DNA from: Janibacter sp. A1S7
GTDB taxonomy: Bacteria; Actinomycetota; Actinomycetes; Actinomycetales; Dermatophilaceae
DNA length: 64,000 bases
Direction of reading: 5' to 3'
NCBI RefSeq assembly: GCF_037198315.1
Contig: NZ_CP144913.1
Coordinates: 1,736,001 to 1,800,000 of the forward strand
Positions 4,462-39,462 of the stretch are shown here, piece by piece; position 1 is the stretch's first letter, and each line of letters begins with the position of its first letter. The notes under the pieces are model-generated. The model searched no databases. It worked only from the letters and a program-made list of their open reading frames with translations, and was not told the origin of the DNA. A program made the translations under genes and the position numbers.

Positions 4462-6171
4462 TCATTCACGGTCTCGATCAGGCGATGCGCGCGAGGCGAT
4501 CGCGGCGTCGATCGAGGGGAACATCCGGGGCTCTGCACCCTCCGGATCGGCCTTCGCCAGCACGTCTCGTACCTGCCCGATGTTCGCGGCAAGCGCGAGA
4601 TCCGCACCCATCCGACGCAGGTCCGTCCTCAGTTGCGCGAGCATCTCAGCAGCGGTGATGTCGATGGAGGGAGTCGTTCGACCGTCGAGCACCACGAGGT
4701 CGAGGGCATCGTGGTCACGAGCCAGCTCCCGCACGGCGCTGCGGACATGGTCGGCATTGGCGAAGACGAGTGGCCCCTCGACGCGAATCACCAACACGCC
4801 CGGGGGCGCGGCGAAGTCCGGATTCCGGCTGATGTCGACCCACGGGGCATGCTGCGCGGTGTCGGTCGGAGCCAGCTGCGCCAGGTGCGGATCCGACGTA
4901 CGCGCGAGCAGCAGGACCAACGAGACGGCGATACCGATGGCCAACCCCGGCAGGGTGTCGAACACCAGAACTCCCGCGACCGTGGCAACAGCCGCAGAGA
5001 AGTCGGCGCGCGCCGTGAGCGAGTACGTCTTCGCCACCGAACCTGCCCGGAATCGCCACAACCGACGCAGGGAGGCCACGTCCACCAGTTCGATGACCGC
5101 CGCGATGACGATGGCCGCGAGACACGCTTCGGGCAGGTTCTCGAAGAGTCCGGTCAGGAACAGCAGAGTCAGCAGCGTCAGCACCGCCGTGGTCACTGTG
5201 GACAGCTGGGACTTGGCTCCTGCGGCTCCGTTGACCGCCGTCTTGGACAAGCTTCCGTTGACCACCATGCCGGACGCCATACCGGTTCCCAGGTTGGCGA
5301 CGCCCAAGCCAAGCAGTTCTCGGTTCGGGTCGATGTCGTAGCCGGCCTTCGCGGCATAGGTCTTGGCCGCACCCAGCCCCTCGGAGAACCCAACCAGCAT
5401 GACCCCGACCCCGCCGGCCAAGAGGGCCGAGACGTCCGATGCCGTGATGGCGGGCAGGCCGAGTTGCGGCAGGCCCGAGTCGATGTGTCCCACGATCTCG
5501 AGCCCATGATCGTCCAGGCCGAACATCGCCACCACACCGATTCCGGCCATCGCCACCAGGAGCGAACCGGGCACCAGCGGCAGGAACCGGCGCAGGAGCA
5601 GCAGGGTCACCAGGCTCACTGCACCGACCGCCAGGGCCAGCGGTTCGGTGTCGCCGAGGTGCCGGACCAGGTCCCACAACTTCTCGAAGAAGTTGCCCGA
5701 CCCCTTGTCCACGCCGAACAGCGAGGGCAGTTGTCCGACGATGATGGTCAGCGCCAAGCCGATGATGAAACCCTTGAGCACCGGTTCGCTGATGAAACCT
5801 GCGAGAAAGCCCAGCCGCAGGGCCCCGGCCACCACCGCGGCGATGCCCGTCGCCAGGGCCAGAGCGGTCGACAACGCAAGATAGGCACCGTGGTCCCCTG
5901 ACGGCGCGACCGTGGCGATCACTCCGGCGGAGAGGGCCGCGGTAGCTGACATCGGTGCCACCACCAGGTGTCTCGACGAACCGATGAGGGCGTACAGCAC
6001 CAGTGAGGGAACGGCCGCGTACAAACCGACGACCGGATCCACCCCGGCGATCGTGGCGTAGGCGAGGGACTCGGGAACGAGCACGGCCCACACCGTCAGT
6101 CCGGCGATCAGGTCCGGCCGCAACCACGCGCGTCGGTAACCTCGAAAGGAGACGGCCAGGTCCAGTGACAC
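4462..6171 (-). CDS. SulP-family anion permease with STAS domain
   Basis: Inner-membrane transporter of the SulP (SLC26) family, which moves sulfate, bicarbonate or other anions. The 569-aa protein has the N-terminal family signature (PDLIAGLTVWAVLVPESLAY), about 10-14 membrane segments over residues 15-410, and a C-terminal cytoplasmic STAS domain at about 455-560. Length is typical. It starts 5 nt after the stop of the bile-acid/arsenite-type transporter gene, so the two form an operon. The substrate cannot be told from sequence. No cys gene is next to it, so sulfate is possible but unproven. Confidence 0.88.
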   Translation of the reverse strand: MSLDLAVSFRGYRRAWLRPDLIAGLTVWAVLVPESLAYATIAGVDPVVGLYAAVPSLVLYALIGSSRHLVVAPMSATAALSAGVIATVAPSGDHGAYLALSTALALATGIAAVVAGALRLGFLAGFISEPVLKGFIIGLALTIIVGQLPSLFGVDKGSGNFFEKLWDLVRHLGDTEPLALAVGAVSLVTLLLLRRFLPLVPGSLLVAMAGIGVVAMFGLDDHGLEIVGHIDSGLPQLGLPAITASDVSALLAGGVGVMLVGFSEGLGAAKTYAAKAGYDIDPNRELLGLGVANLGTGMASGMVVNGSLSKTAVNGAAGAKSQLSTVTTAVLTLLTLLFLTGLFENLPEACLAAIVIAAVIELVDVASLRRLWRFRAGSVAKTYSLTARADFSAAVATVAGVLVFDTLPGLAIGIAVSLVLLLARTSDPHLAQLAPTDTAQHAPWVDISRNPDFAAPPGVLVIRVEGPLVFANADHVRSAVRELARDHDALDLVVLDGRTTPSIDITAAEMLAQLRTDLRRMGADLALAANIGQVRDVLAKADPEGAEPRMFPSIDAAIASRASPDRDRE

Positions 6172-6176
6172 CTTCG

Positions 6177-7025
6177 TCAGCCCCTTGCTGGTTCGTTGCG
6201 CTTACCGATCTCGCTGGCCATCAGGATCAGCACGATCGGAAGGGTCAGGGCAGCGACCAGGGTCTGGACGACCACGTCACCCCCGAGGGACGCAGCGATC
6301 ACCAGTGCGGCGGAGATGTTGCGCTGGGCAGCCGCGAGACCCAGCACCATCCGGTCCCCGCTCTCGTGTCCCAGTCCACCAACCCATCCGGCGGCGAGTC
6401 CCACCACGATGATCAGCACGGTGCCGATGAACACCCACGACCCGACCGACGCAAAGACCTCGCGCCACGTCACCAGGAGCGCGGAGACGATTCCCACGGA
6501 GAGGCCGACCGTCGAAGCCTGGTTGCACCCGGCGACCACGGCATCCGCAGCGTGCGGGTAGCGAGCCCGGACCAGGAGTCCCACCGCCAGCGGAACGAGC
6601 ATGAACAGGATCAAGGACTGGGCGATGTCCCGGGCCGAGACCTGCGCGCCGTCAACCGCGAGGGGGACGACGAGTGGCGCGAAGGCGACCGTCACGACCA
6701 TCAGCAGCACCATCGTTCCGACCGCCAGCGGCTGGCTTCCGTGAGAGAGCTTCGCCAGAGTCGGCAGGAAGGGGGCCCCGGCGCAGCAGCCGACGAGGAT
6801 CACGGCGGTGCTGGTCGCGTCCCCCATCGGCAGTAGGCGGCCGATCGCGATGGCCGCCGCCGGAACCACGATGAAGTTCGCGACGAGCGCCCCCACCACG
6901 AGCCGTGAGTCGCTCAGTGGTGCGGTGATCTCCCGCAGGCTCAGGCTCAGACCCATCCCGAGCATCCCGGCCACCACGAAACTCAGGATCCCCACCTGGG
7001 TGATCACGGTCAACACTTCTGTCAT
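6177..7025 (-). CDS. bile acid:sodium symporter (BASS) family transporter
   Basis: A 282-aa integral membrane protein with about nine or ten hydrophobic segments. It resembles the BASS/arsenical-resistance-3 superfamily: a repeated five-helix plan with polar breaks such as GCCAGAPFLPTLAKLS and AAQRNISAALVIA. It is probably a secondary transporter of an organic anion; the substrate is unknown. A TTG further upstream would extend it, but the ATG at 7025 lies 7 nt after the -10 box TAGATT, consistent with leaderless transcription. It is first in an operon with the SulP gene, and a 15-bp palindrome sits at the expected -35 position. Confidence 0.82.
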   Translation of the reverse strand: MTEVLTVITQVGILSFVVAGMLGMGLSLSLREITAPLSDSRLVVGALVANFIVVPAAAIAIGRLLPMGDATSTAVILVGCCAGAPFLPTLAKLSHGSQPLAVGTMVLLMVVTVAFAPLVVPLAVDGAQVSARDIAQSLILFMLVPLAVGLLVRARYPHAADAVVAGCNQASTVGLSVGIVSALLVTWREVFASVGSWVFIGTVLIIVVGLAAGWVGGLGHESGDRMVLGLAAAQRNISAALVIAASLGGDVVVQTLVAALTLPIVLILMASEIGKRNEPARG

Positions 7026-7032
7026 GGACGCG

Positions 7033-7038
7033 AATCTA
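7033..7038 (-). promoter_or_regulatory. -10 box of BASS/SulP operon
   Basis: TAGATT on the minus strand, 7 nt before the ATG at 7025. The spacing implies a leaderless mRNA. Confidence 0.55.
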
Positions 7039-7062
7039 GTGTTCGCGTTCCTCGCCAAGCAT

Positions 7063-7077
7063 CACCCGATTCGGGTG
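7063..7077. promoter_or_regulatory. 15-bp perfect palindrome, candidate operator
   Basis: CACCCGA-T-TCGGGTG is a perfect inverted repeat about 25 bp upstream of the BASS -10 box, covering the expected -35 region. A single central base makes it a poor hairpin but a good dimer-binding site. No regulator gene is adjacent. Confidence 0.5.
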
Positions 7078-7261
7078 GGCTTGGGATCACGCCCGGAATG
7101 GGCGTGGTCCTGACCCCAGTTCGTCCATCACCCTGTCGGGCATGCGGTGGCTGCGCTGCCCCGGGCTCGCGAAGATGACGAGCTCGTCGCCGCTGGCCCA
7201 CGTGCCCCCGTCCTCGTGCCGGCCCGTCGCCAGGAGCCCACGGCGGCAACCTCCGGCGTCG

Positions 7262-7267
7262 TAGGCT
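7262..7267 (+). promoter_or_regulatory. -10 box of PAC2-family gene
   Basis: TAGGCT, 7 nt before the GTG at 7275. Leaderless arrangement. Confidence 0.6.
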
Positions 7268-7274
7268 GGGGAAC

Positions 7275-8132
7275 GTGATCGAGATCGAGGACGTGCCTGA
7301 GCTCCATGACCCGGTGATGATCCTCGCCTTCGAGGGGTGGAACGACGCCGGCGAGGCCGCCACACGGGTCATCGAGCACCTCATCGAGCTGTGGGGCGCC
7401 GAGACCGTGGCCGCGATCGACCCCGAGGACTACTACGACTTCCAGGTCACCCGGCCCCGACTCACCAACCAGGGCCACGGACGCGGTATCCACTGGGACA
7501 CCACCCGCGTCCTGCTCGCCTCCCCCGACAGCCTCGGTCGCGACGTCCTGCTCGTCACCGGCGCAGAGCCCTCTTTCCGCTGGCGGGCCTTCACCACCGA
7601 GCTGCTCGACCTGGGAGTCACCCACGGCGTCGGGACGGTCATCTGCCTGGGTTCGCTCCTGGCCGATGTCGCGCACACGCGACCCATCCCGGTCTCCTCC
7701 TCCAGCCCCGACGAGATGACCTCGTACCGGTTCGAGCTCGAACCCTCGCAGTACGAGGGCCCGACGGGCATCACCGGGGTCGTCGCCGACGGTGCTCACC
7801 AGGCCGAGATGGTCTCGATCTCCTCGTGGGCCGCCGTCCCGCACTATGCCGCCCAGGTCCCCTGCCCCAAGGCGAGTCTGGCCCTGATCGGGCAGCTGGA
7901 GGACCTGCTCGACACGGTCATCGAGCACGGCGAGCTCGAGGAGGAGTCGCGCGCGTGGGAGCGGGGCGTCGACGAGCTCGCCACGAGCGACGAGGACATC
8001 GCCGAGTACGTCTCCGCGCTGGAGAGCGCCCAGGACACCTCCGAGCTGCCGGAGGCCAGCGGGGACGCGATCGCCAAGGAGTTCGAGCGCTACCTGCGTC
8101 GGCGTGGCGAGGACACCAACGGCCCCGGCTGA
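7275..8132 (+). CDS. PAC2-family protein
   Basis: A 285-aa protein of the PAC2 family (proteasome-assembly-chaperone-2-like fold), widespread in actinobacteria. The N-terminus (ELHDPVMILAFEGWNDAGEA) and the GTVICLGSLLADVAHTRPI region are typical of the family. The eukaryotic and archaeal relatives help assemble proteasomes. The bacterial role is not settled, and no proteasome gene is seen in this window. It converges on mshC, with stop codons 19 nt apart, in the conserved mshC neighbourhood. The GTG start is set by the TAGGCT box just upstream. The C-terminus (about 200-285) is acidic and probably partly disordered. Confidence 0.88.
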   Translation: MIEIEDVPELHDPVMILAFEGWNDAGEAATRVIEHLIELWGAETVAAIDPEDYYDFQVTRPRLTNQGHGRGIHWDTTRVLLASPDSLGRDVLLVTGAEPSFRWRAFTTELLDLGVTHGVGTVICLGSLLADVAHTRPIPVSSSSPDEMTSYRFELEPSQYEGPTGITGVVADGAHQAEMVSISSWAAVPHYAAQVPCPKASLALIGQLEDLLDTVIEHGELEEESRAWERGVDELATSDEDIAEYVSALESAQDTSELPEASGDAIAKEFERYLRRRGEDTNGPG

Positions 8133-8151
8133 GCGCCGAACCCCGGCTGGA

Positions 8152-9393
8152 TCACAGACGCACGCCCAGTAGCGCGTCCACCGCCCGGGCGAGGTCCCCG
8201 GGCGCGCTGGTGACATCGCCCCCGGAGCCGAGGGACTGCGCGCACCACGTGTCGACCGCGACAAGGGCGCTCGGCGTGTCCAGGTCGTCCGCGAGGGCGG
8301 CCCGCACGGCAGCGATCGTCGCCGCGGAGTCGGGTCCCCCGTCGGTCGACATGGCCGAGCGCCACCGCTCAAGGCGCGCCTGCGCGGCGGCCAGCAGCTC
8401 GTCGGTCCACTCCCACTCGGTGCGGTAGTGGCGGTCCAGCAGCGCCAGTCGGATGGCCCGGGAGTCGACACCGTCCTCGCGCAGGGTCGAGACGCGTACG
8501 AGGTTGCCCTTGGACTTGCTCATCTTCTCGCCGTCGTAGGCCACCATCGCCTGGTGGGCCGTGTGCGTGGCGAAGGGACGGTGGCCGGTGATCGCCTCGG
8601 CCTGGATGACCGACATCTCGTGGTGCGGGAAGACGAGGTCGGTACCGCCGCCCTGGACGTCGATCCGCTCCCCGAGATGCTCCATGGCGATCGCCGTGCA
8701 CTCGATGTGCCAGCCGGGTCGCCCGGGGCCGAGCGCTCCGCCCTCCCACGCGGGCTCGCCGGCTCGTTCGCCGCGCCAGAGCATCGGATCGAGCGGGTCC
8801 CGCTTGCCGACGCGCTCGGGGTCGCCACCACGCTCCGCGGAGAAGGCGAGCATCGTGTCGCGGTCGAGGTGGCTCAGTTCCCCGAGGCCACCGGCCGCCG
8901 CGAGGTCGAGGTAGGTGTCGCGGATGCCGTCCTCGACGACCTCGTAGGTCACGCCGCGGTCGACGAGAGCCAGCACCGTCTCGATGATCGTCGGCATCGA
9001 CTCGATGACACCCATGAAGTGGTCCGGCGCGATGACGTCGAGAGCGGTCATGTCCTCGAGGAAGAGGGCGATCTGCTCCTGCCCGAGGTCCCGCCAGTCG
9101 ATCCCGTCGCGCTCGGCGCGCTCGAAGAGGGGGTCGTCGACGTCGGTGACGTTCTGCACGTAGGTGACCTCACGGTTGCCGTCGCGCAGGGCGCGGTTGA
9201 CCAGGTCGAAGGTCACGTAGGTCGCCGCGTGGCCCATGTGCGTCGTGTCGTACGGGGTCACGCCACAGACATAGAGGGTCGCGCCGCCCTGCGGTTCCAC
9301 CGGTTCGACGCGTCGGCGCGCCACGTCGTGGAGGCGAAGGGGGACGGGGTCACCGGGGACCAGGGGAAGGTGGGGGGACGGCCAGGCTCTCAC
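8152..9393 (-). CDS. mshC: mycothiol biosynthesis cysteine ligase MshC
   Basis: ATP-dependent ligase that joins cysteine to glucosaminyl-inositol (1-D-myo-inositol 2-amino-2-deoxy-glucopyranoside), the third step of mycothiol synthesis in the cytosol. The 413-aa protein is a cysteinyl-tRNA synthetase paralogue. It has the class I signature THMGH at 51-55, zinc-ligand C43 in YVCGVTPYD, and the KMSKSKGN loop near residue 290. It lacks the anticodon-binding domain of true CysRS, giving the MshC-type length. The start is a GTG 7 nt after the box TAGGCT. It follows three conserved genes of unknown function on the same strand but seems to have its own promoter. Confidence 0.95.
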
Positions 9394-35257: not shown

Positions 35258-35314
35258 TCCGTCTCGCCATCCGAGCGTCTCGGCTACCTCAGGCCGTCAC
35301 CACGTCATAGATGA
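35255..35314 (+). pseudogene. probable 5' remnant of a gene divergent from sir
   Basis: From the ATG at 35255 the frame reads MSVSPSERLGYLR in native-looking GC-rich codons, then runs into the island and stops after 19 codons. It has its own leaderless -10 box and the shared palindromic operator. The rest of the gene is not found on the other side of the island. By position it may have been the sulfur regulator or another divergent partner of sir, but 13 residues are too few to identify a family. Confidence 0.4.
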
Positions 35315-36422
35315 GGCCACCCACCCCCTCCTCACCGGCACGATGGATGTCTGGATGGCCGCCCCACAACTTCATTGTCTCCCGGGCGCACGCCCCGTAG
35401 TCCAGCGATGGTGGCGCCTTTGCCTTCGCGCCAGCCCGATAAGATTTGCACATCTGGACCACGCGCGCCTTGACACAATTAGCCCCTTGACCCAAGAGTG
35501 CCAGCCGCTCTGGACTGCCCAACCATGTAGCGCCGTCCTCGATTCTCTCGAAGAGGATTGGCAGCGCCCGCCTTAACAATTCTCCCTTTGTCCACCCGGC
35601 ATACGTCATCAAAGTATTCTGGATGCACCACCAAGAAGGCATGACTGGATTCCACCCTTCAGTATGGGGCCCAGTCGCGGTCTGTGTACTCAACTCCACC
35701 AACGATGCTTGTTCATCGATGGTCGGTGTACGGCCGTCAACTACTAGGCGTTCACCGAGGCTCAGCACCTCCTCCAACATGGTCAGCGCTTGGACGTCCG
35801 TCTCGCGCGTACTGGTCTGGGTCACCATGAACGGCCCAATCACCCGGAAGATCATTTCGAAGAGGCCATCCATCCACTGCTCAAGGATCAGCCCGCCACA
35901 CAGGCCAAGGTCGATCATTACATCGTCGGGCACCAAAGCATCACCAACAATGAGTCGACGAACTGATAATGGATCTGGCGCTATGGCAGCTCGGGGTGCC
36001 ACCTCCGCCGCCGAACCGAACCTGGTCGGCACGGCGAAGACAGGCACTTCACCCCTTCTCGCGTTCACCATGGAAACAAGTCCACGCTGAGCCCTCATGC
36101 TTACGGGATCCAACAGCCATGGATACCGCGTGGCAAGCGCAGCCACCTTGCACGTATCCACAACGCTTCCACCGCCCAGAGCAACGATGCCAAACTGGCC
36201 CAACGAGTTGCGAGCCAGTCGATCATGGATTTCTTGGACCCCGGCGACTGTCGCCGCCGCAGACTGCATGAGCACGAGCACGTCGCTGCGCACACCGCCC
36301 TCTTCGAGCAACCGACCGATCCGGTACAGATGTCCTGCTGTGCGCACACCCACGTCGGTCACAACAATCACGTGGTCGAAATCCGCGAGGCGGCCCACAT
36401 TATCGAGCGTTGAGTCTGCCAT
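35289..36422 (-). CDS. iron-type alcohol dehydrogenase homologue with altered metal site
   Basis: A 377-aa protein of the Fe-ADH/dehydroquinate-synthase-like fold. The nucleotide motif is GGGSVVD at 83-89, and VPTRFGSAAEVAP (131-143) matches the usual PTTAGTGSEVT region. In the metal site D185 of WMDGLFEM is in place, but the usual histidine four residues on is E189. The normal second HxxxH region has no clear histidine pair (WTKGELL, near 277-283). So metal binding or catalysis may be altered. It is last in a three-gene coupled operon (TGATG overlap) of low-G+C, foreign-looking DNA. Its substrate is unknown; acting on the product of the first gene is a guess. Confidence 0.7.
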   Translation of the reverse strand: MADSTLDNVGRLADFDHVIVVTDVGVRTAGHLYRIGRLLEEGGVRSDVLVLMQSAAATVAGVQEIHDRLARNSLGQFGIVALGGGSVVDTCKVAALATRYPWLLDPVSMRAQRGLVSMVNARRGEVPVFAVPTRFGSAAEVAPRAAIAPDPLSVRRLIVGDALVPDDVMIDLGLCGGLILEQWMDGLFEMIFRVIGPFMVTQTSTRETDVQALTMLEEVLSLGERLVVDGRTPTIDEQASLVELSTQTATGPHTEGWNPVMPSWWCIQNTLMTYAGWTKGELLRRALPILFERIEDGATWLGSPERLALLGQGANCVKARVVQMCKSYRAGAKAKAPPSLDYGACARETMKLWGGHPDIHRAGEEGVGGLIYDVVTA

Positions 36423-36619
36423 CAGCGCCGAGGTGACATTACATGCATTATCAGCATCCCAACGCCCACCACGACAAGGACCCAACCCAGTACCTGTCCG
36501 CCCGAGACAATTCTATCCACGCCAAGAATTGTGATAAGTAGGCAGCACAGGGCGAAAACATAGAATCGGATCATCGATGCAAATGACTGGTCCTGTTGAG
36601 CGCTTTCTGGAGTCTTCAC
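36422..36619 (-). CDS. small two-helix membrane protein of the island
   Basis: A 65-aa protein with a short polar N-terminus and two hydrophobic segments at about 17-33 (IRFYVFALCCLLITILG) and 43-60 (VLGWVLVVVGVGMLIMHV), ending SPRR. I recognise no family. The GTG start overlaps the stop of the cysteine-rich gene (GTGA), and its stop overlaps the start of the dehydrogenase-like gene (TGATG). Small membrane proteins next to bacteriocin genes are often immunity proteins, which is the leading guess; a maturation partner is the alternative. A longer frame exists upstream but would lie inside the previous gene. Confidence 0.6.
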   Translation of the reverse strand: MKTPESAQQDQSFASMIRFYVFALCCLLITILGVDRIVSGGQVLGWVLVVVGVGMLIMHVMSPRR

Positions 36620-37782
36620 GTCGGGTACACGCACGTTGAGCAAACTGCGTGTGCAGACGCGCAGCATGCATCAACAGCAGCGGGACACGAAGCCATCGCA
36701 CAGAGGATGCAGGTGAACCAGCCGCTGCACGACAGGCACCCGATGCAACTGACTGTTCCTGCCACACACTGCCACGTCGCTGCCCAGTCGCACTCCTCCG
36801 TCATGTGCTTCTCACCACAGGTATTGCCCGGGCCGCACGACAGATTGCACCCTCCACATGGGTCGCTCGCCATATTCAGGAGATCAGCGTCCTGCGGGAC
36901 AGGCACTGGGACATCTCCGTTGACGCTCACGGCCACATTTTCGAACGACGACAGGTCGCCCGACTCTAGTAGGTCCACGTGCATATGCTGCGCACGGGAT
37001 ACGAATCCATCGACCGGCTCGGTACGACGAGTGTGCGTAAGAAAGATCCGCTGTTCGTGCTGGTAGCACAACACCGTCCGCTCAATTACGCCGTTCGACA
37101 ACCTGTGCTCAACTCCCGACACTTCGATTGCCCCGGTGCCCGTCGACACACTGCCAGTTCCGTCTCCCGCTTGCTGCAATAGATCCTTGGAAACGCTGGA
37201 CAATTCGGAGGACTTAGCCTGTGACCCCAGTAGGGCGTGGGCACCGACTACATTCCTCATATCAGTTGAGGCGAAGGCTCGTTCAACCTCGTCAATCAAA
37301 TCGCGACCTTCGAGATACACCCCAGCCGACTTCGTAGTTGTTGTTGACGTGGGCTTGGCTGACGGCTTTGCCACTGCGTTGCTTGTTCGTGCCAACAACC
37401 CGATCCCCACGGCTGCTCCAAGACTACCGCGGATAAGTGCCCGCCGCTGAATGAGGGCCTTCCATGGAGAACCACTGAGAGCGTCGCCACCGAGAGCCGC
37501 AAGGATCCGCCAAGTGGTTCGCGTGTCAAGATGGCGCGAAAGCACGGGCGCAATCTGCCACCCCGTCCACGCTTGAATATCTCCTCCCTTCTCCACAACC
37601 AGCGTGGGCGCCCAAGGTGGATTCTTGCCCAAGGCTCGCTGTCGCCACTCCTGCATTGCGTGCGACCGCAAGGACATCACTTGGACGCGTTCGCCTGACC
37701 CCTCGGTGATCCTTCGTGCTATTCGGGAGCACTCCCCACACGACGCGTCGAAGCCCAGAAAAAGATTCGTCGTAGTGCCCAT
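36616..37782 (-). CDS. CxxC-domain/signal-helix/16-cysteine protein, halocin C8-like C-terminus
   Basis: A 388-aa protein with a striking layout. Residues 1-90 look like a thioredoxin/DCC-type domain with FDASCGECSR (C15, C18). Residues 112-138 form an internal signal-like segment: twin arginines R113-R114, a hydrophobic stretch, then NAVA-KP, a possible peptidase site. A Ser/Thr/Lys linker (139-151) and a mixed domain (152-300) follow. Residues 309-388 hold 16 cysteines in 80 residues (309, 312, 316, 322, 331, 339, 346, 349, 352, 358, 361, 366, 373, 374, 381, 384) with small hydrophobic spacers, resembling halocin C8-type bacteriocin domains. The ATG at 37782 follows AAGGGGA. Low G+C suggests transfer. 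A secreted, disulfide-rich toxin or peptide precursor is inferred. Confidence 0.7.
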   Translation of the reverse strand: MGTTTNLFLGFDASCGECSRIARRITEGSGERVQVMSLRSHAMQEWRQRALGKNPPWAPTLVVEKGGDIQAWTGWQIAPVLSRHLDTRTTWRILAALGGDALSGSPWKALIQRRALIRGSLGAAVGIGLLARTSNAVAKPSAKPTSTTTTKSAGVYLEGRDLIDEVERAFASTDMRNVVGAHALLGSQAKSSELSSVSKDLLQQAGDGTGSVSTGTGAIEVSGVEHRLSNGVIERTVLCYQHEQRIFLTHTRRTEPVDGFVSRAQHMHVDLLESGDLSSFENVAVSVNGDVPVPVPQDADLLNMASDPCGGCNLSCGPGNTCGEKHMTEECDWAATWQCVAGTVSCIGCLSCSGWFTCILCAMASCPAAVDACCASAHAVCSTCVYPT

Positions 37783-37863
37783 TTGGCTTTTCCCCTTGGC
37801 TCGGTTCAAGCGTGCCTGTACCACCATCACACGAGGCTGGAGGTCGCGCAACCGGAGAAGGTC

Positions 37864-39462
37864 TTACGCCAAGGCGATGAGTTCTCGATAGTCGGCGTTC
37901 CAGAAGTCCTCGATCCCGTCGGGCAGCAGCAGGATCCGCTCCGGCTGCAGGGCGTCGACCGCGCCCTCGTCGTGGGTGACGAGAACGACGGCGCCGGAGA
38001 ACGTCGACAACGCCCCGAGGATCTCCTCGCGGCTGGCCGGGTCGAGGTTGTTCGTCGGCTCGTCGAGGAGCAGGACGTTGGCGCTGGAGACGACGAGCAG
38101 TGCCAGGGACAGCCGGGTCTTCTCCCCGCCGGAGAGCACGCCGGCGGGCTTGTCCACGTCGTCGCCGGAGAAGAGGAAGGACCCCAGCACCTTGCGCACC
38201 TCGGTCTCGCCGAGATCCGGCGCCGCGGACTTCATGTTGGCCAGCACGCTGCGGTCGACGTCGAGGTTCTCGTGCTCCTGGGCGTAGTAGCCGAGCTTGA
38301 GCCCGTGCCCCGGCTCGACCTGGCCGGTGTCCGGTGCGTCGACGCCGGCGAGCATGCGCAGCAGGGTGGTCTTCCCGGCACCGTTGAGGCCGAGGACGAC
38401 GACCTTGCTCCCCCGGTCGATCGCCAGGTCGACGTCGGTGAAGATCTCCAGGCTTCCGTAGGAGCGCGACAGCCCCGAGGCACGAAGGGGGGTCCGCCCG
38501 CACGGTGCGGGGTCGGGGAAGCGCAACCGGGCCACCCGGTCGCTGGCCCGCTCCCCCTCGACGCCGGCGAGCATCTTCTCCGCCCGCTTGATCATCTGCT
38601 GGGCGGCGGTGGCCTTCGTCGCCTTCGCCCGCATCTTGTCGGCCTGCTCGAGCAGCGCGCCGGCCTTCTTCTGCGCGTTCTGCAGCTCGCGCTTGCGGCG
38701 GCGCTCGTCGGTCTCGCGCTGCTGGAGGTAGTTCTTCCAGCCCATGTTGTAGATGTCGAGCTCGCACCGGTTGGCGTCGAGGTGGAAGACGCGGTTGACG
38801 ACGACCTCGAGCAGCTCGACGTCGTGGCTGATGATGATCAGCCCGCCCTTGTAGTTCTTCAGGTGCTCCCGCAGCCAGGCGATGGAGTCGGCGTCGAGGT
38901 GGTTCGTCGGCTCGTCGAGAAGCAGGGTCTCGTTGCCGGAGAAGAGGATCCGGGCCAGCTCCACGCGCCGCCGCTGACCGCCGGAGAGGGTCTCGAGCGT
39001 CTGGTCGAGACGGTCCTCGTCGATGCCCAGGGCCGAGGCCATGCTCGCCGCCTCCGACTCGGCCGCGTAGCCGCCGACGGCCTCGAACTCCTCCTGCAGT
39101 CGCGCGAAGCGGGCCATCGCCCGCTCCAGGGTCTCCGGGTCGGCGCTCGCCATCCGCTGCTCCGCGGTCCGCCGCTCGGTGACGATGCGGTCGAGACCTC
39201 GGGCCGAGAGGATGCGTTCGCGTGCGGTCACGCTCAGGTCACCTGTCCGCGGGTCCTGCGGCAGGTAGCCGATGCCCCCACCGGAGGTGACCTCGCCCGT
39301 TGCCGCCTGCCCCTGACCGGCGAGCACCTTCGTCAGGGTCGTCTTGCCGGCGCCGTTGCGCCCGACGAGGCCGACCCGGTCACCCGGCGCGACCCGGAAG
39401 GTCGCGCCCTCGAGAAGGATCCGGGAGCCAGCGCGCAGCTCGATCCCGGTTGCTGTGATCAC
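37864..39462 (-). CDS. ABC-F family ATPase
   Basis: A 532-aa soluble protein with two ABC domains in tandem and no membrane part. Walker A motifs are GRNGAGKTT (about 36-44) and GLNGAGKTT (about 360-368), signatures LSGGQRRR and LSGGEKTR, with a charged linker between. ABC-F proteins act on ribosomes (translation factors or antibiotic resistance) and are cytosolic. This one looks like the housekeeping actinobacterial type, but a resistance role cannot be excluded. The start is a GTG 8 nt after GGAGAA. It lies next to the foreign island, with an 81-nt gap. Confidence 0.9.
   Translation of the reverse strand: MITATGIELRAGSRILLEGATFRVAPGDRVGLVGRNGAGKTTLTKVLAGQGQAATGEVTSGGGIGYLPQDPRTGDLSVTARERILSARGLDRIVTERRTAEQRMASADPETLERAMARFARLQEEFEAVGGYAAESEAASMASALGIDEDRLDQTLETLSGGQRRRVELARILFSGNETLLLDEPTNHLDADSIAWLREHLKNYKGGLIIISHDVELLEVVVNRVFHLDANRCELDIYNMGWKNYLQQRETDERRRKRELQNAQKKAGALLEQADKMRAKATKATAAQQMIKRAEKMLAGVEGERASDRVARLRFPDPAPCGRTPLRASGLSRSYGSLEIFTDVDLAIDRGSKVVVLGLNGAGKTTLLRMLAGVDAPDTGQVEPGHGLKLGYYAQEHENLDVDRSVLANMKSAAPDLGETEVRKVLGSFLFSGDDVDKPAGVLSGGEKTRLSLALLVVSSANVLLLDEPTNNLDPASREEILGALSTFSGAVVLVTHDEGAVDALQPERILLLPDGIEDFWNADYRELIALA

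What the first reader, a model, noticed from the sequence alone, without database searches (positions are those of the whole stretch)
35289..37782. Three-gene low-G+C island: cysteine-rich secreted-type protein, small membrane protein, altered Fe-ADH
Three minus-strand genes are chained by GTGA and TGATG overlaps, so they are made as one unit. Their G+C is visibly below that of the flanking sir and ABC-F genes, and no neighbour explains them. I know of no described system with this exact set. A testable model: the first gene is a disulfide-rich bacteriocin-like precursor carrying its own thiol domain, the second its immunity or export partner, the third a modifying or redox enzyme.
Basis: partly seen in the sequence, partly recalled or inferred. 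Interest (0 to 1): 0.86.

Follow-up and report, generated by a model that had tools for sequence, protein, structure and literature searches.

The report
Cysteine-rich precursor with daptide-like tail enzyme
A small, acquired three-gene cluster probably makes a cysteine-rich bacteriocin-like protein whose last amino acid, a threonine, is likely turned into a ketone by a relative of the daptide enzyme; it is a prediction from sequence that a simple mass measurement could test.

Summary
The three overlapping minus-strand genes are real: island G+C is 0.589 against a mean of 0.702 elsewhere in the window, with foreign codon usage. They sit in a 2.6-kb insertion; in 14 of 14 sibling loci examined ABC-F runs directly into sir. 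Gene 1 and gene 3 recur together in four other loci, three of them with a small two-hydrophobic-segment gene between. Gene 1 has a thioredoxin-type CxxC domain, a Tat-like segment, a variable middle and a C-terminal domain with 13 invariant cysteines; its thiol domain also heads other cysteine-rich proteins, some annotated 'bacteriocin fulvocin C-related'. Gene 3 is not an ordinary Fe-ADH: it groups with daptide DapC/MpaC, which oxidatively decarboxylates a C-terminal Thr, and has the same E-R-W-K residues in place of the metal ligands. All 5 precursors beside this enzyme end in Thr; 1 of 25 counted relatives without it does. DapB, the daptide docking protein, was not found in the four trio genomes. 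Best reading: a disulfide-rich bacteriocin-like precursor, its thioredoxin domain serving as leader, given a C-terminal aminoacetone by a DapB-free DapC. The reaction, antibacterial action and role of gene 2 are inferred.

The parts
35303..37879 (.). Acquired island between ABC-F and sir; ends approximate within tens of bases
   Evidence: 14 of 14 sibling loci have ABC-F directly followed by sir; junctions printed, where the last codons of the window ABC-F also differ from the siblings; G+C 0.589
36616..37782 (-). Gene 1: thioredoxin-headed, cysteine-rich precursor, 388 aa, ends ...CVYPT
   Evidence: four close full-length relatives at about 36-48% identity
37483..37782 (-). Gene 1 residues 1-100: thioredoxin-type domain with C15-x-x-C18 and a PTL motif
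   Evidence: predicted E-H-E-H-E-E-H-H order, block pLDDT 56-87; profile of 16 relatives hits PDB thioredoxins, best E 0.0006; Foldseek top three are thioredoxins, best E 0.008, not significant alone
37369..37446 (-). Gene 1 residues 113-138: Tat-like hydrophobic segment (RRALIRGSLG...)
   Evidence: low-confidence helix 114-131; R-x-x-F/L-x-R/K pattern in the relatives, RR pair only in the window copy among the five; export route is inference
36871..37368 (-). Gene 1 residues 139-304: variable middle
   Evidence: residues 141-305 are 24-32% identical to the four relatives; partly beta in a low-confidence model
36619..36870 (-). Gene 1 residues 305-388: cysteine-rich C-terminal domain, putative mature product
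   Evidence: 13 cysteines invariant in the five relatives
36619..36621 (-). Codon of the C-terminal Thr388, predicted site of modification
   Evidence: Thr in 5 of 5 precursors beside the gene 3 sibling, 1 of 25 counted without it
36422..36619 (-). Gene 2: 65-aa protein with two hydrophobic segments; candidate immunity or partner protein
   Evidence: counterparts at the same place in 3 of the 4 other loci; 24% and 10% identical to two of them; weak sub-cutoff DUF7533 hit
35289..36422 (-). Gene 3: DapC-like relative of Fe-ADH without the metal ligands, 377 aa
   Evidence: best NCBIfam match daptide_DH NF041822, E 2.8e-45, 154.8 bits, under its 300-bit cut-off; tree
35844..35858 (-). E189 and R193, in place of the first two metal ligands (Asp, His)
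   Evidence: alignment (numbered 191 and 195 there)
35586..35630 (-). W265 and K279, in place of the other two metal-ligand histidines
   Evidence: alignment (numbered 267 and 281 there)

Best explanation
The island is a compact system for a modified, disulfide-rich, bacteriocin-like protein. Gene 1 is the precursor: its N-terminal thioredoxin-type domain acts as an oversized leader (recruiting the enzyme and/or handling the cysteines), a Tat-like segment takes the rest across the membrane, and the last ~80 residues are the cysteine-rich product. Before export, gene 3, a metal-free, NAD-type DapC relative, oxidises the beta-hydroxyl of the C-terminal Thr; loss of CO2 leaves an aminoacetone (ketone) end. 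No aminotransferase, methyltransferase or DapB is in the set, so the ketone is probably the end product and the precursor itself must recruit the enzyme. Gene 2 is probably producer protection or a membrane partner. Shown: gene order, insertion, recurrence of genes 1 and 3, domain make-up, grouping with DapC, active-site substitutions, link between Thr and enzyme. Inferred: the reaction, its timing, cleavage, antibacterial action, immunity.
For: Gene 3 and its four siblings match daptide_DH at 143-163 bits; the next NCBIfam model reaches at most 56. In an IQ-TREE tree the five form one clade (100/100) inside a group with the DapC-type rows (97/91), apart from ordinary Fe-ADHs. All five, and all 27 other DapC-type relatives aligned, carry E, R, W, K where the 6 ordinary Fe-ADHs carry the (recalled) metal-ligand positions. 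TfDapC works without added metal, and MpaC accepted none of seven replacements of the C-terminal Thr (PMC12338566, PMC10036551; passages). Precursors beside the enzyme end VYPT (three), GLPT, MGQT: 5 of 5, against 1 of 25 (Fisher p 4e-5, not corrected for relatedness). It holds both ways: the three strongest gene 1 relatives (E 7e-69 or better) sit beside the enzyme, and the four strongest enzyme relatives sit beside gene 1. DapB was found in 4 of 4 daptide-type genomes and 0 of 4 trio genomes. TfDapC was partly competent without DapB on an MBP-fused substrate.
Against: No experiment. Gene 3 scores under the daptide_DH cut-off. The five precursors are one family, so the shared Thr could be descent. 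MpaC gave no product without MpaB in E. coli; what replaces it here is not shown. One relative without the enzyme (L074) ends in Thr. Long but weaker gene 1 relatives (G111, the Rubrobacter plasmid, L071) do without the enzyme. No protease, transporter or proven immunity gene lies in the island. Gene 1 does not match the fulvocin-related model NF033852.
Confidence: 0.6

Rival explanations
1. The cysteine-rich precursor is real and exported, but gene 3 does something else (an internal residue or a small molecule) and the terminal Thr is inherited without function.
For: Sub-cutoff daptide_DH score; DapB not found; the five precursors are one family.
Against: The DapC-type E-R-W-K site is kept in all five, and Thr is kept while the three residues before it change (VYP, GLP, MGQ).
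Confidence: 0.2
2. Gene 1 is not a bacteriocin but a thiol, metal or cofactor-carrying protein whose C-terminus is modified for that purpose.
For: Thioredoxin-type domain; 13 invariant cysteines; no transporter or protease in the island.
Against: The same thiol domain heads proteins annotated as bacteriocin fulvocin C-related; the set is sporadic (found in 4 genomes in searches of 186, 394, 341 and 396 genomes, partly overlapping), and in this genome foreign and absent from siblings.
Confidence: 0.15
3. The genes are unrelated neighbours brought in together by chance.
For: Small island absent from the 15 siblings; gene 2 is poorly conserved.
Against: Genes 1 and 3 recur in the same order in four other loci with otherwise different surroundings.
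Confidence: 0.02

Closest known systems
Daptide biosynthesis (MpaB/MpaC, DapB/DapC)
   Same: Dehydrogenase group, loss of metal ligands, C-terminal Thr on the neighbouring precursor.
   Different: Precursor is a 388-aa thioredoxin-headed cysteine-rich protein instead of a short peptide with an RRE-bound leader; DapB not found; no aminotransferase, methyltransferase, daptide protease or ABC transporter in the island.
Bacteriocin fulvocin C-related proteins (NF033852)
   Same: N-terminal thiol domain with CxxC and a cysteine-rich C-terminus.
   Different: Gene 1 has no NF033852 match; the relatives held lack the enzyme and, with one exception, the C-terminal Thr.
Halocin C8 (ProC8)
   Same: One precursor whose C-terminal fragment is the active part (passage in PMC12893001; Tat export and cysteine content recalled).
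   Different: Archaeal; no dehydrogenase partner recalled; no match found here.
Micrococcin-type thiopeptides (TclP, TclS)
   Same: Dehydrogenases act on the C-terminal Thr of the precursor (PMC12724294, one passage).
   Different: A different enzyme family (recalled) and a short, heterocyclised peptide.
Iron-containing alcohol dehydrogenases (PF00465)
   Same: Fold and GGGS nucleotide motif.
   Different: All four metal-ligand positions are replaced.

Membership tests
Daptide system | DapC-type dehydrogenase | tested here: inconclusive
   Best NCBIfam model and same group in the tree, but 154.8 bits against the 300-bit cut-off
Daptide system | DapB (RRE) protein | tested here: not met
   NF041823: 0 of 4 trio genomes, 4 of 4 daptide-type genomes positive
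Daptide system | Precursor ends in Thr | tested here: met
   5 of 5 loci
Daptide system | Aminotransferase and methyltransferase in the cluster | tested here: not met
   None in the island; none shared by the five neighbourhoods at E 1e-8
Daptide system | C-terminal Thr oxidatively decarboxylated | not testable with these tools
   Needs mass spectrometry
Fulvocin C-related family NF033852 | Match to the family model | tested here: not met
   None for gene 1 or the G413 copy; two of the seven members of A5, not named by the tool, and L027 do match
Metal-dependent Fe-ADH | Asp and three His as metal ligands (recalled) | tested here: not met
   E, R, W, K at those positions
Thioredoxin-type proteins (N-terminal domain) | CxxC at the start of helix 1 and a Pro before the next strand | tested here: met
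   C15, C18, P59 invariant in 16 relatives; profile hits thioredoxins; order of strands and helices
Halocin C8-type bacteriocin | Sequence match to a halocin C8-type domain | tested here: inconclusive
   No match in NCBIfam or Pfam, but I did not check that such a model is in the libraries

The most novel reading that the evidence does not exclude
A new class of ribosomal natural product: a disulfide-rich protein bacteriocin capped by a C-terminal aminoacetone, in which a thioredoxin-type leader replaces the RRE docking protein. DapC-type enzymes would then be a general C-terminal-Thr tool used by daptides, by this class, and (L156) by a thiopeptide-like cluster.
Probability: 0.45. Interest if true: 0.87.

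Novelty: new variant of a known kind. Interest (0 to 1): 0.74.

Why it matters
If true, it would be a natural DapB-free route to a ketone handle on the C-terminus of a large, disulfide-rich protein; Dommaraju et al. reached protein labelling of this sort by engineering the daptide enzymes (PMC12338566; abstract, passages and sections 6 and 14 seen). It would also make thioredoxin-headed bacteriocin-like precursors a testable group and ask how a modifying enzyme is recruited without an RRE.

Tried and rejected
A search of genome contigs with gene 1 alone found no relative; the alignment found seven loci. The label 'fulvocin C-related' was dropped for gene 1: the plasmid proteins so annotated match only its first ~130 residues and gene 1 does not match the model. 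Phage or viral origin has no support: no gene 1 match in phages, one weak enzyme match in viral contigs. Of 12 plasmid records with a gene 1 match I fetched two; neither region holds the enzyme; the other ten were not looked at. The enzyme has two plasmid matches, both annotated mpaC. An ABC-F fragment also lies upstream of the G764 trio (L106 5259-5951); of the other loci only the window has an ABC-F there, so I treat it as chance. The gene 1 model is poor outside residues 1-98 (mean pLDDT 49.9), so the fold of the cysteine-rich part is not discussed.

Limits of the counts. The rows were copied by hand. I left out cut-off or broken genes and those with fewer than 4 Cys in the last 75 residues (L003/L034, L005/L035, L011, L072, L073, L118, L122); a piece of L005 is cysteine-rich and ends in Arg. 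L006, L021, L124 and L125 were not reported and are not counted. For several of the 25 the enzyme could be sought only within about 1.5 kb or up to a contig end. The genome searches scored only the best 4 or 5 candidates per genome. In the tree the label dapC is mine, given to all remaining rows; only L028 is annotated as such.

Literature. Listings seen: 'fulvocin C' (2 papers), 'daptide' (12 held, 8 listed), 'halocin C8' (19 held, 12 listed) and five combinations (two searches gave none). Passages read: PMC12338566 (plus abstract and sections 6 and 14), PMC10036551, PMC12893001, PMC6759562, PMC12724294. None of what I saw describes this gene set.

Full report
Observation. Island G+C is 0.589; 1126 same-length positions outside it have mean 0.702 and minimum 0.661. 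Codon-usage z-scores are -8.7, -12.6 and -9.0 against 24 long ORFs of the window.

Insertion. Nearly full-length ABC-F matches were found in 14 of 15 sibling genomes. In all 14 loci ABC-F runs directly into sir. The inserted piece is about 35303-37879; the last codons of the window ABC-F also differ from the siblings. No sibling has a gene 1 match.

Distribution. Gene 1 was searched in 186 genomes of the family (6 with a match, this genome included) and 394 of the class (16 with a match, this genome included). All four sit beside a gene 3 relative. In three of the four a small gene with two hydrophobic segments lies between; its sequence similarity is significant only between Nocardiopsis and G764, and 24% and 10% identity link the window copy to two of them. 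Longer but weaker gene 1 relatives without the enzyme exist (G111, a Rubrobacter radiotolerans plasmid, L071). Gene 3 as a profile in 341 and 396 genomes gave, after the sibling places (E 4e-133 or better), only matches at E 3e-44 or weaker. Of eleven regions then fetched, one is the G764 trio, L116 is unclear, and I read the others as daptide clusters from precursor-like ORFs next door; in the two of them where I searched and it lies in the same region, DapB is present (G378, G663). The five neighbourhoods held share, at E 1e-8, the trio, XRE-type regulators in two loci (33%) and ABC ATPases, plus antisense frames of these (the region around the G222 C38 pair starts at a contig end). The set has lower G+C than its flanks in 4 of 5 loci.

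Gene 1. The first 100 residues are thioredoxin-type: a profile of 16 relatives matches 52 PDB sequences at E up to 1, of which 50 are thioredoxins, TXNDC5 or protein disulfide-isomerases, best E 0.0006. C15, C18 and P59 are invariant in those 16, and the predicted order of strands and helices fits. Foldseek ranks thioredoxins first but none at E 0.001 or better. Pfam gives weak matches only: DCC1-like and thioredoxin in 4 of 16 each. A Tat-like segment follows; among the five only the window copy has the RR pair. The last domain has 13 invariant cysteines. Thiol domain (48-65%) and cysteine-rich domain (36-71%) are the conserved parts; the middle is not (24-32%).

Gene 3. Best NCBIfam match is daptide_DH, 154.8 bits, under the 300-bit cut-off; its siblings score 143-163. 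The five form a clade (100/100) in a group with the DapC-type rows (97/91), apart from ordinary Fe-ADHs; that trio and DapC are strict sisters is not well supported (84/69). E, R, W and K stand at the metal-ligand positions in the five and in all 27 other DapC-type relatives; the ordinary Fe-ADHs for comparison are 6 paralogues from these and related genomes, and the ligand positions are recalled. The model has pTM 0.71.

The link. MpaC, together with MpaB, oxidatively decarboxylates a C-terminal Thr, and none of seven replacements was accepted (PMC10036551, passages). TfDapC needs no added metal, prefers NAD, and gave minimal product without DapB on an MBP-fused substrate (PMC12338566, section 6). 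Here 5 of 5 precursors beside the enzyme end in Thr with different residues before it; of 25 counted relatives without it, 1 does (L074, Nonomuraea glycinis). The p value of 4e-5 ignores relatedness. DapB (NF041823) is absent in 4 of 4 trio genomes and found in 4 of 4 daptide-type genomes used as control (first try without a positive control).

Reading. Gene 3 most likely gives the cysteine-rich product an aminoacetone end before export, and the thioredoxin-type domain is the obvious candidate to present the substrate in place of DapB. The basic residues R and K in the former metal site could hold the carboxylate of the Thr (inference). Gene 2 as immunity is a guess from size, hydropathy and position. 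Antibacterial action is inferred from the fulvocin-related proteins that share the thiol domain.

Limits.

Noticed in passing
L156 (G833) 5145-5333, about 5930-6733 and 6925-8211, minus strand: A DapC-like dehydrogenase (L089) lies between an aminotransferase-like ORF (judged by eye) and a thiazolylpeptide-type precursor (NF033400) that ends ...CSVCST, so DapC-type enzymes may also act in thiopeptide clusters.
   Followed up: partly
L154 (G664) 6002-8514 and L155 (G222) 5496-8005: An aminotransferase-like ORF (by eye) is paired with a Fe-ADH relative that has the E-R-W-K site and a WYPxNT motif; no precursor seen.
   Followed up: partly
Loci listed: The CxxC thioredoxin-type domain heads several different C-terminal families in these bacteria (36 stretches, five of them the set described here), which looks like a common leader module.
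   Followed up: partly
L032 8254-9847 and L044 7535-9029: Two relatives ending YRPGKYC and YRPACN have a larger membrane-like protein (158 and 138 aa, by eye) beside them, perhaps the counterpart of gene 2.
   Followed up: no
L026 5543-9149 (Rubrobacter radiotolerans plasmid 3): A gene 1 relative sits downstream of an S8 serine peptidase and an Ig-like domain protein.
   Followed up: no
L030 6852-7549 and 12118-13042: Transposase-like fragments (by eye) lie on both sides of the G413 set, which would suit mobility.
   Followed up: no
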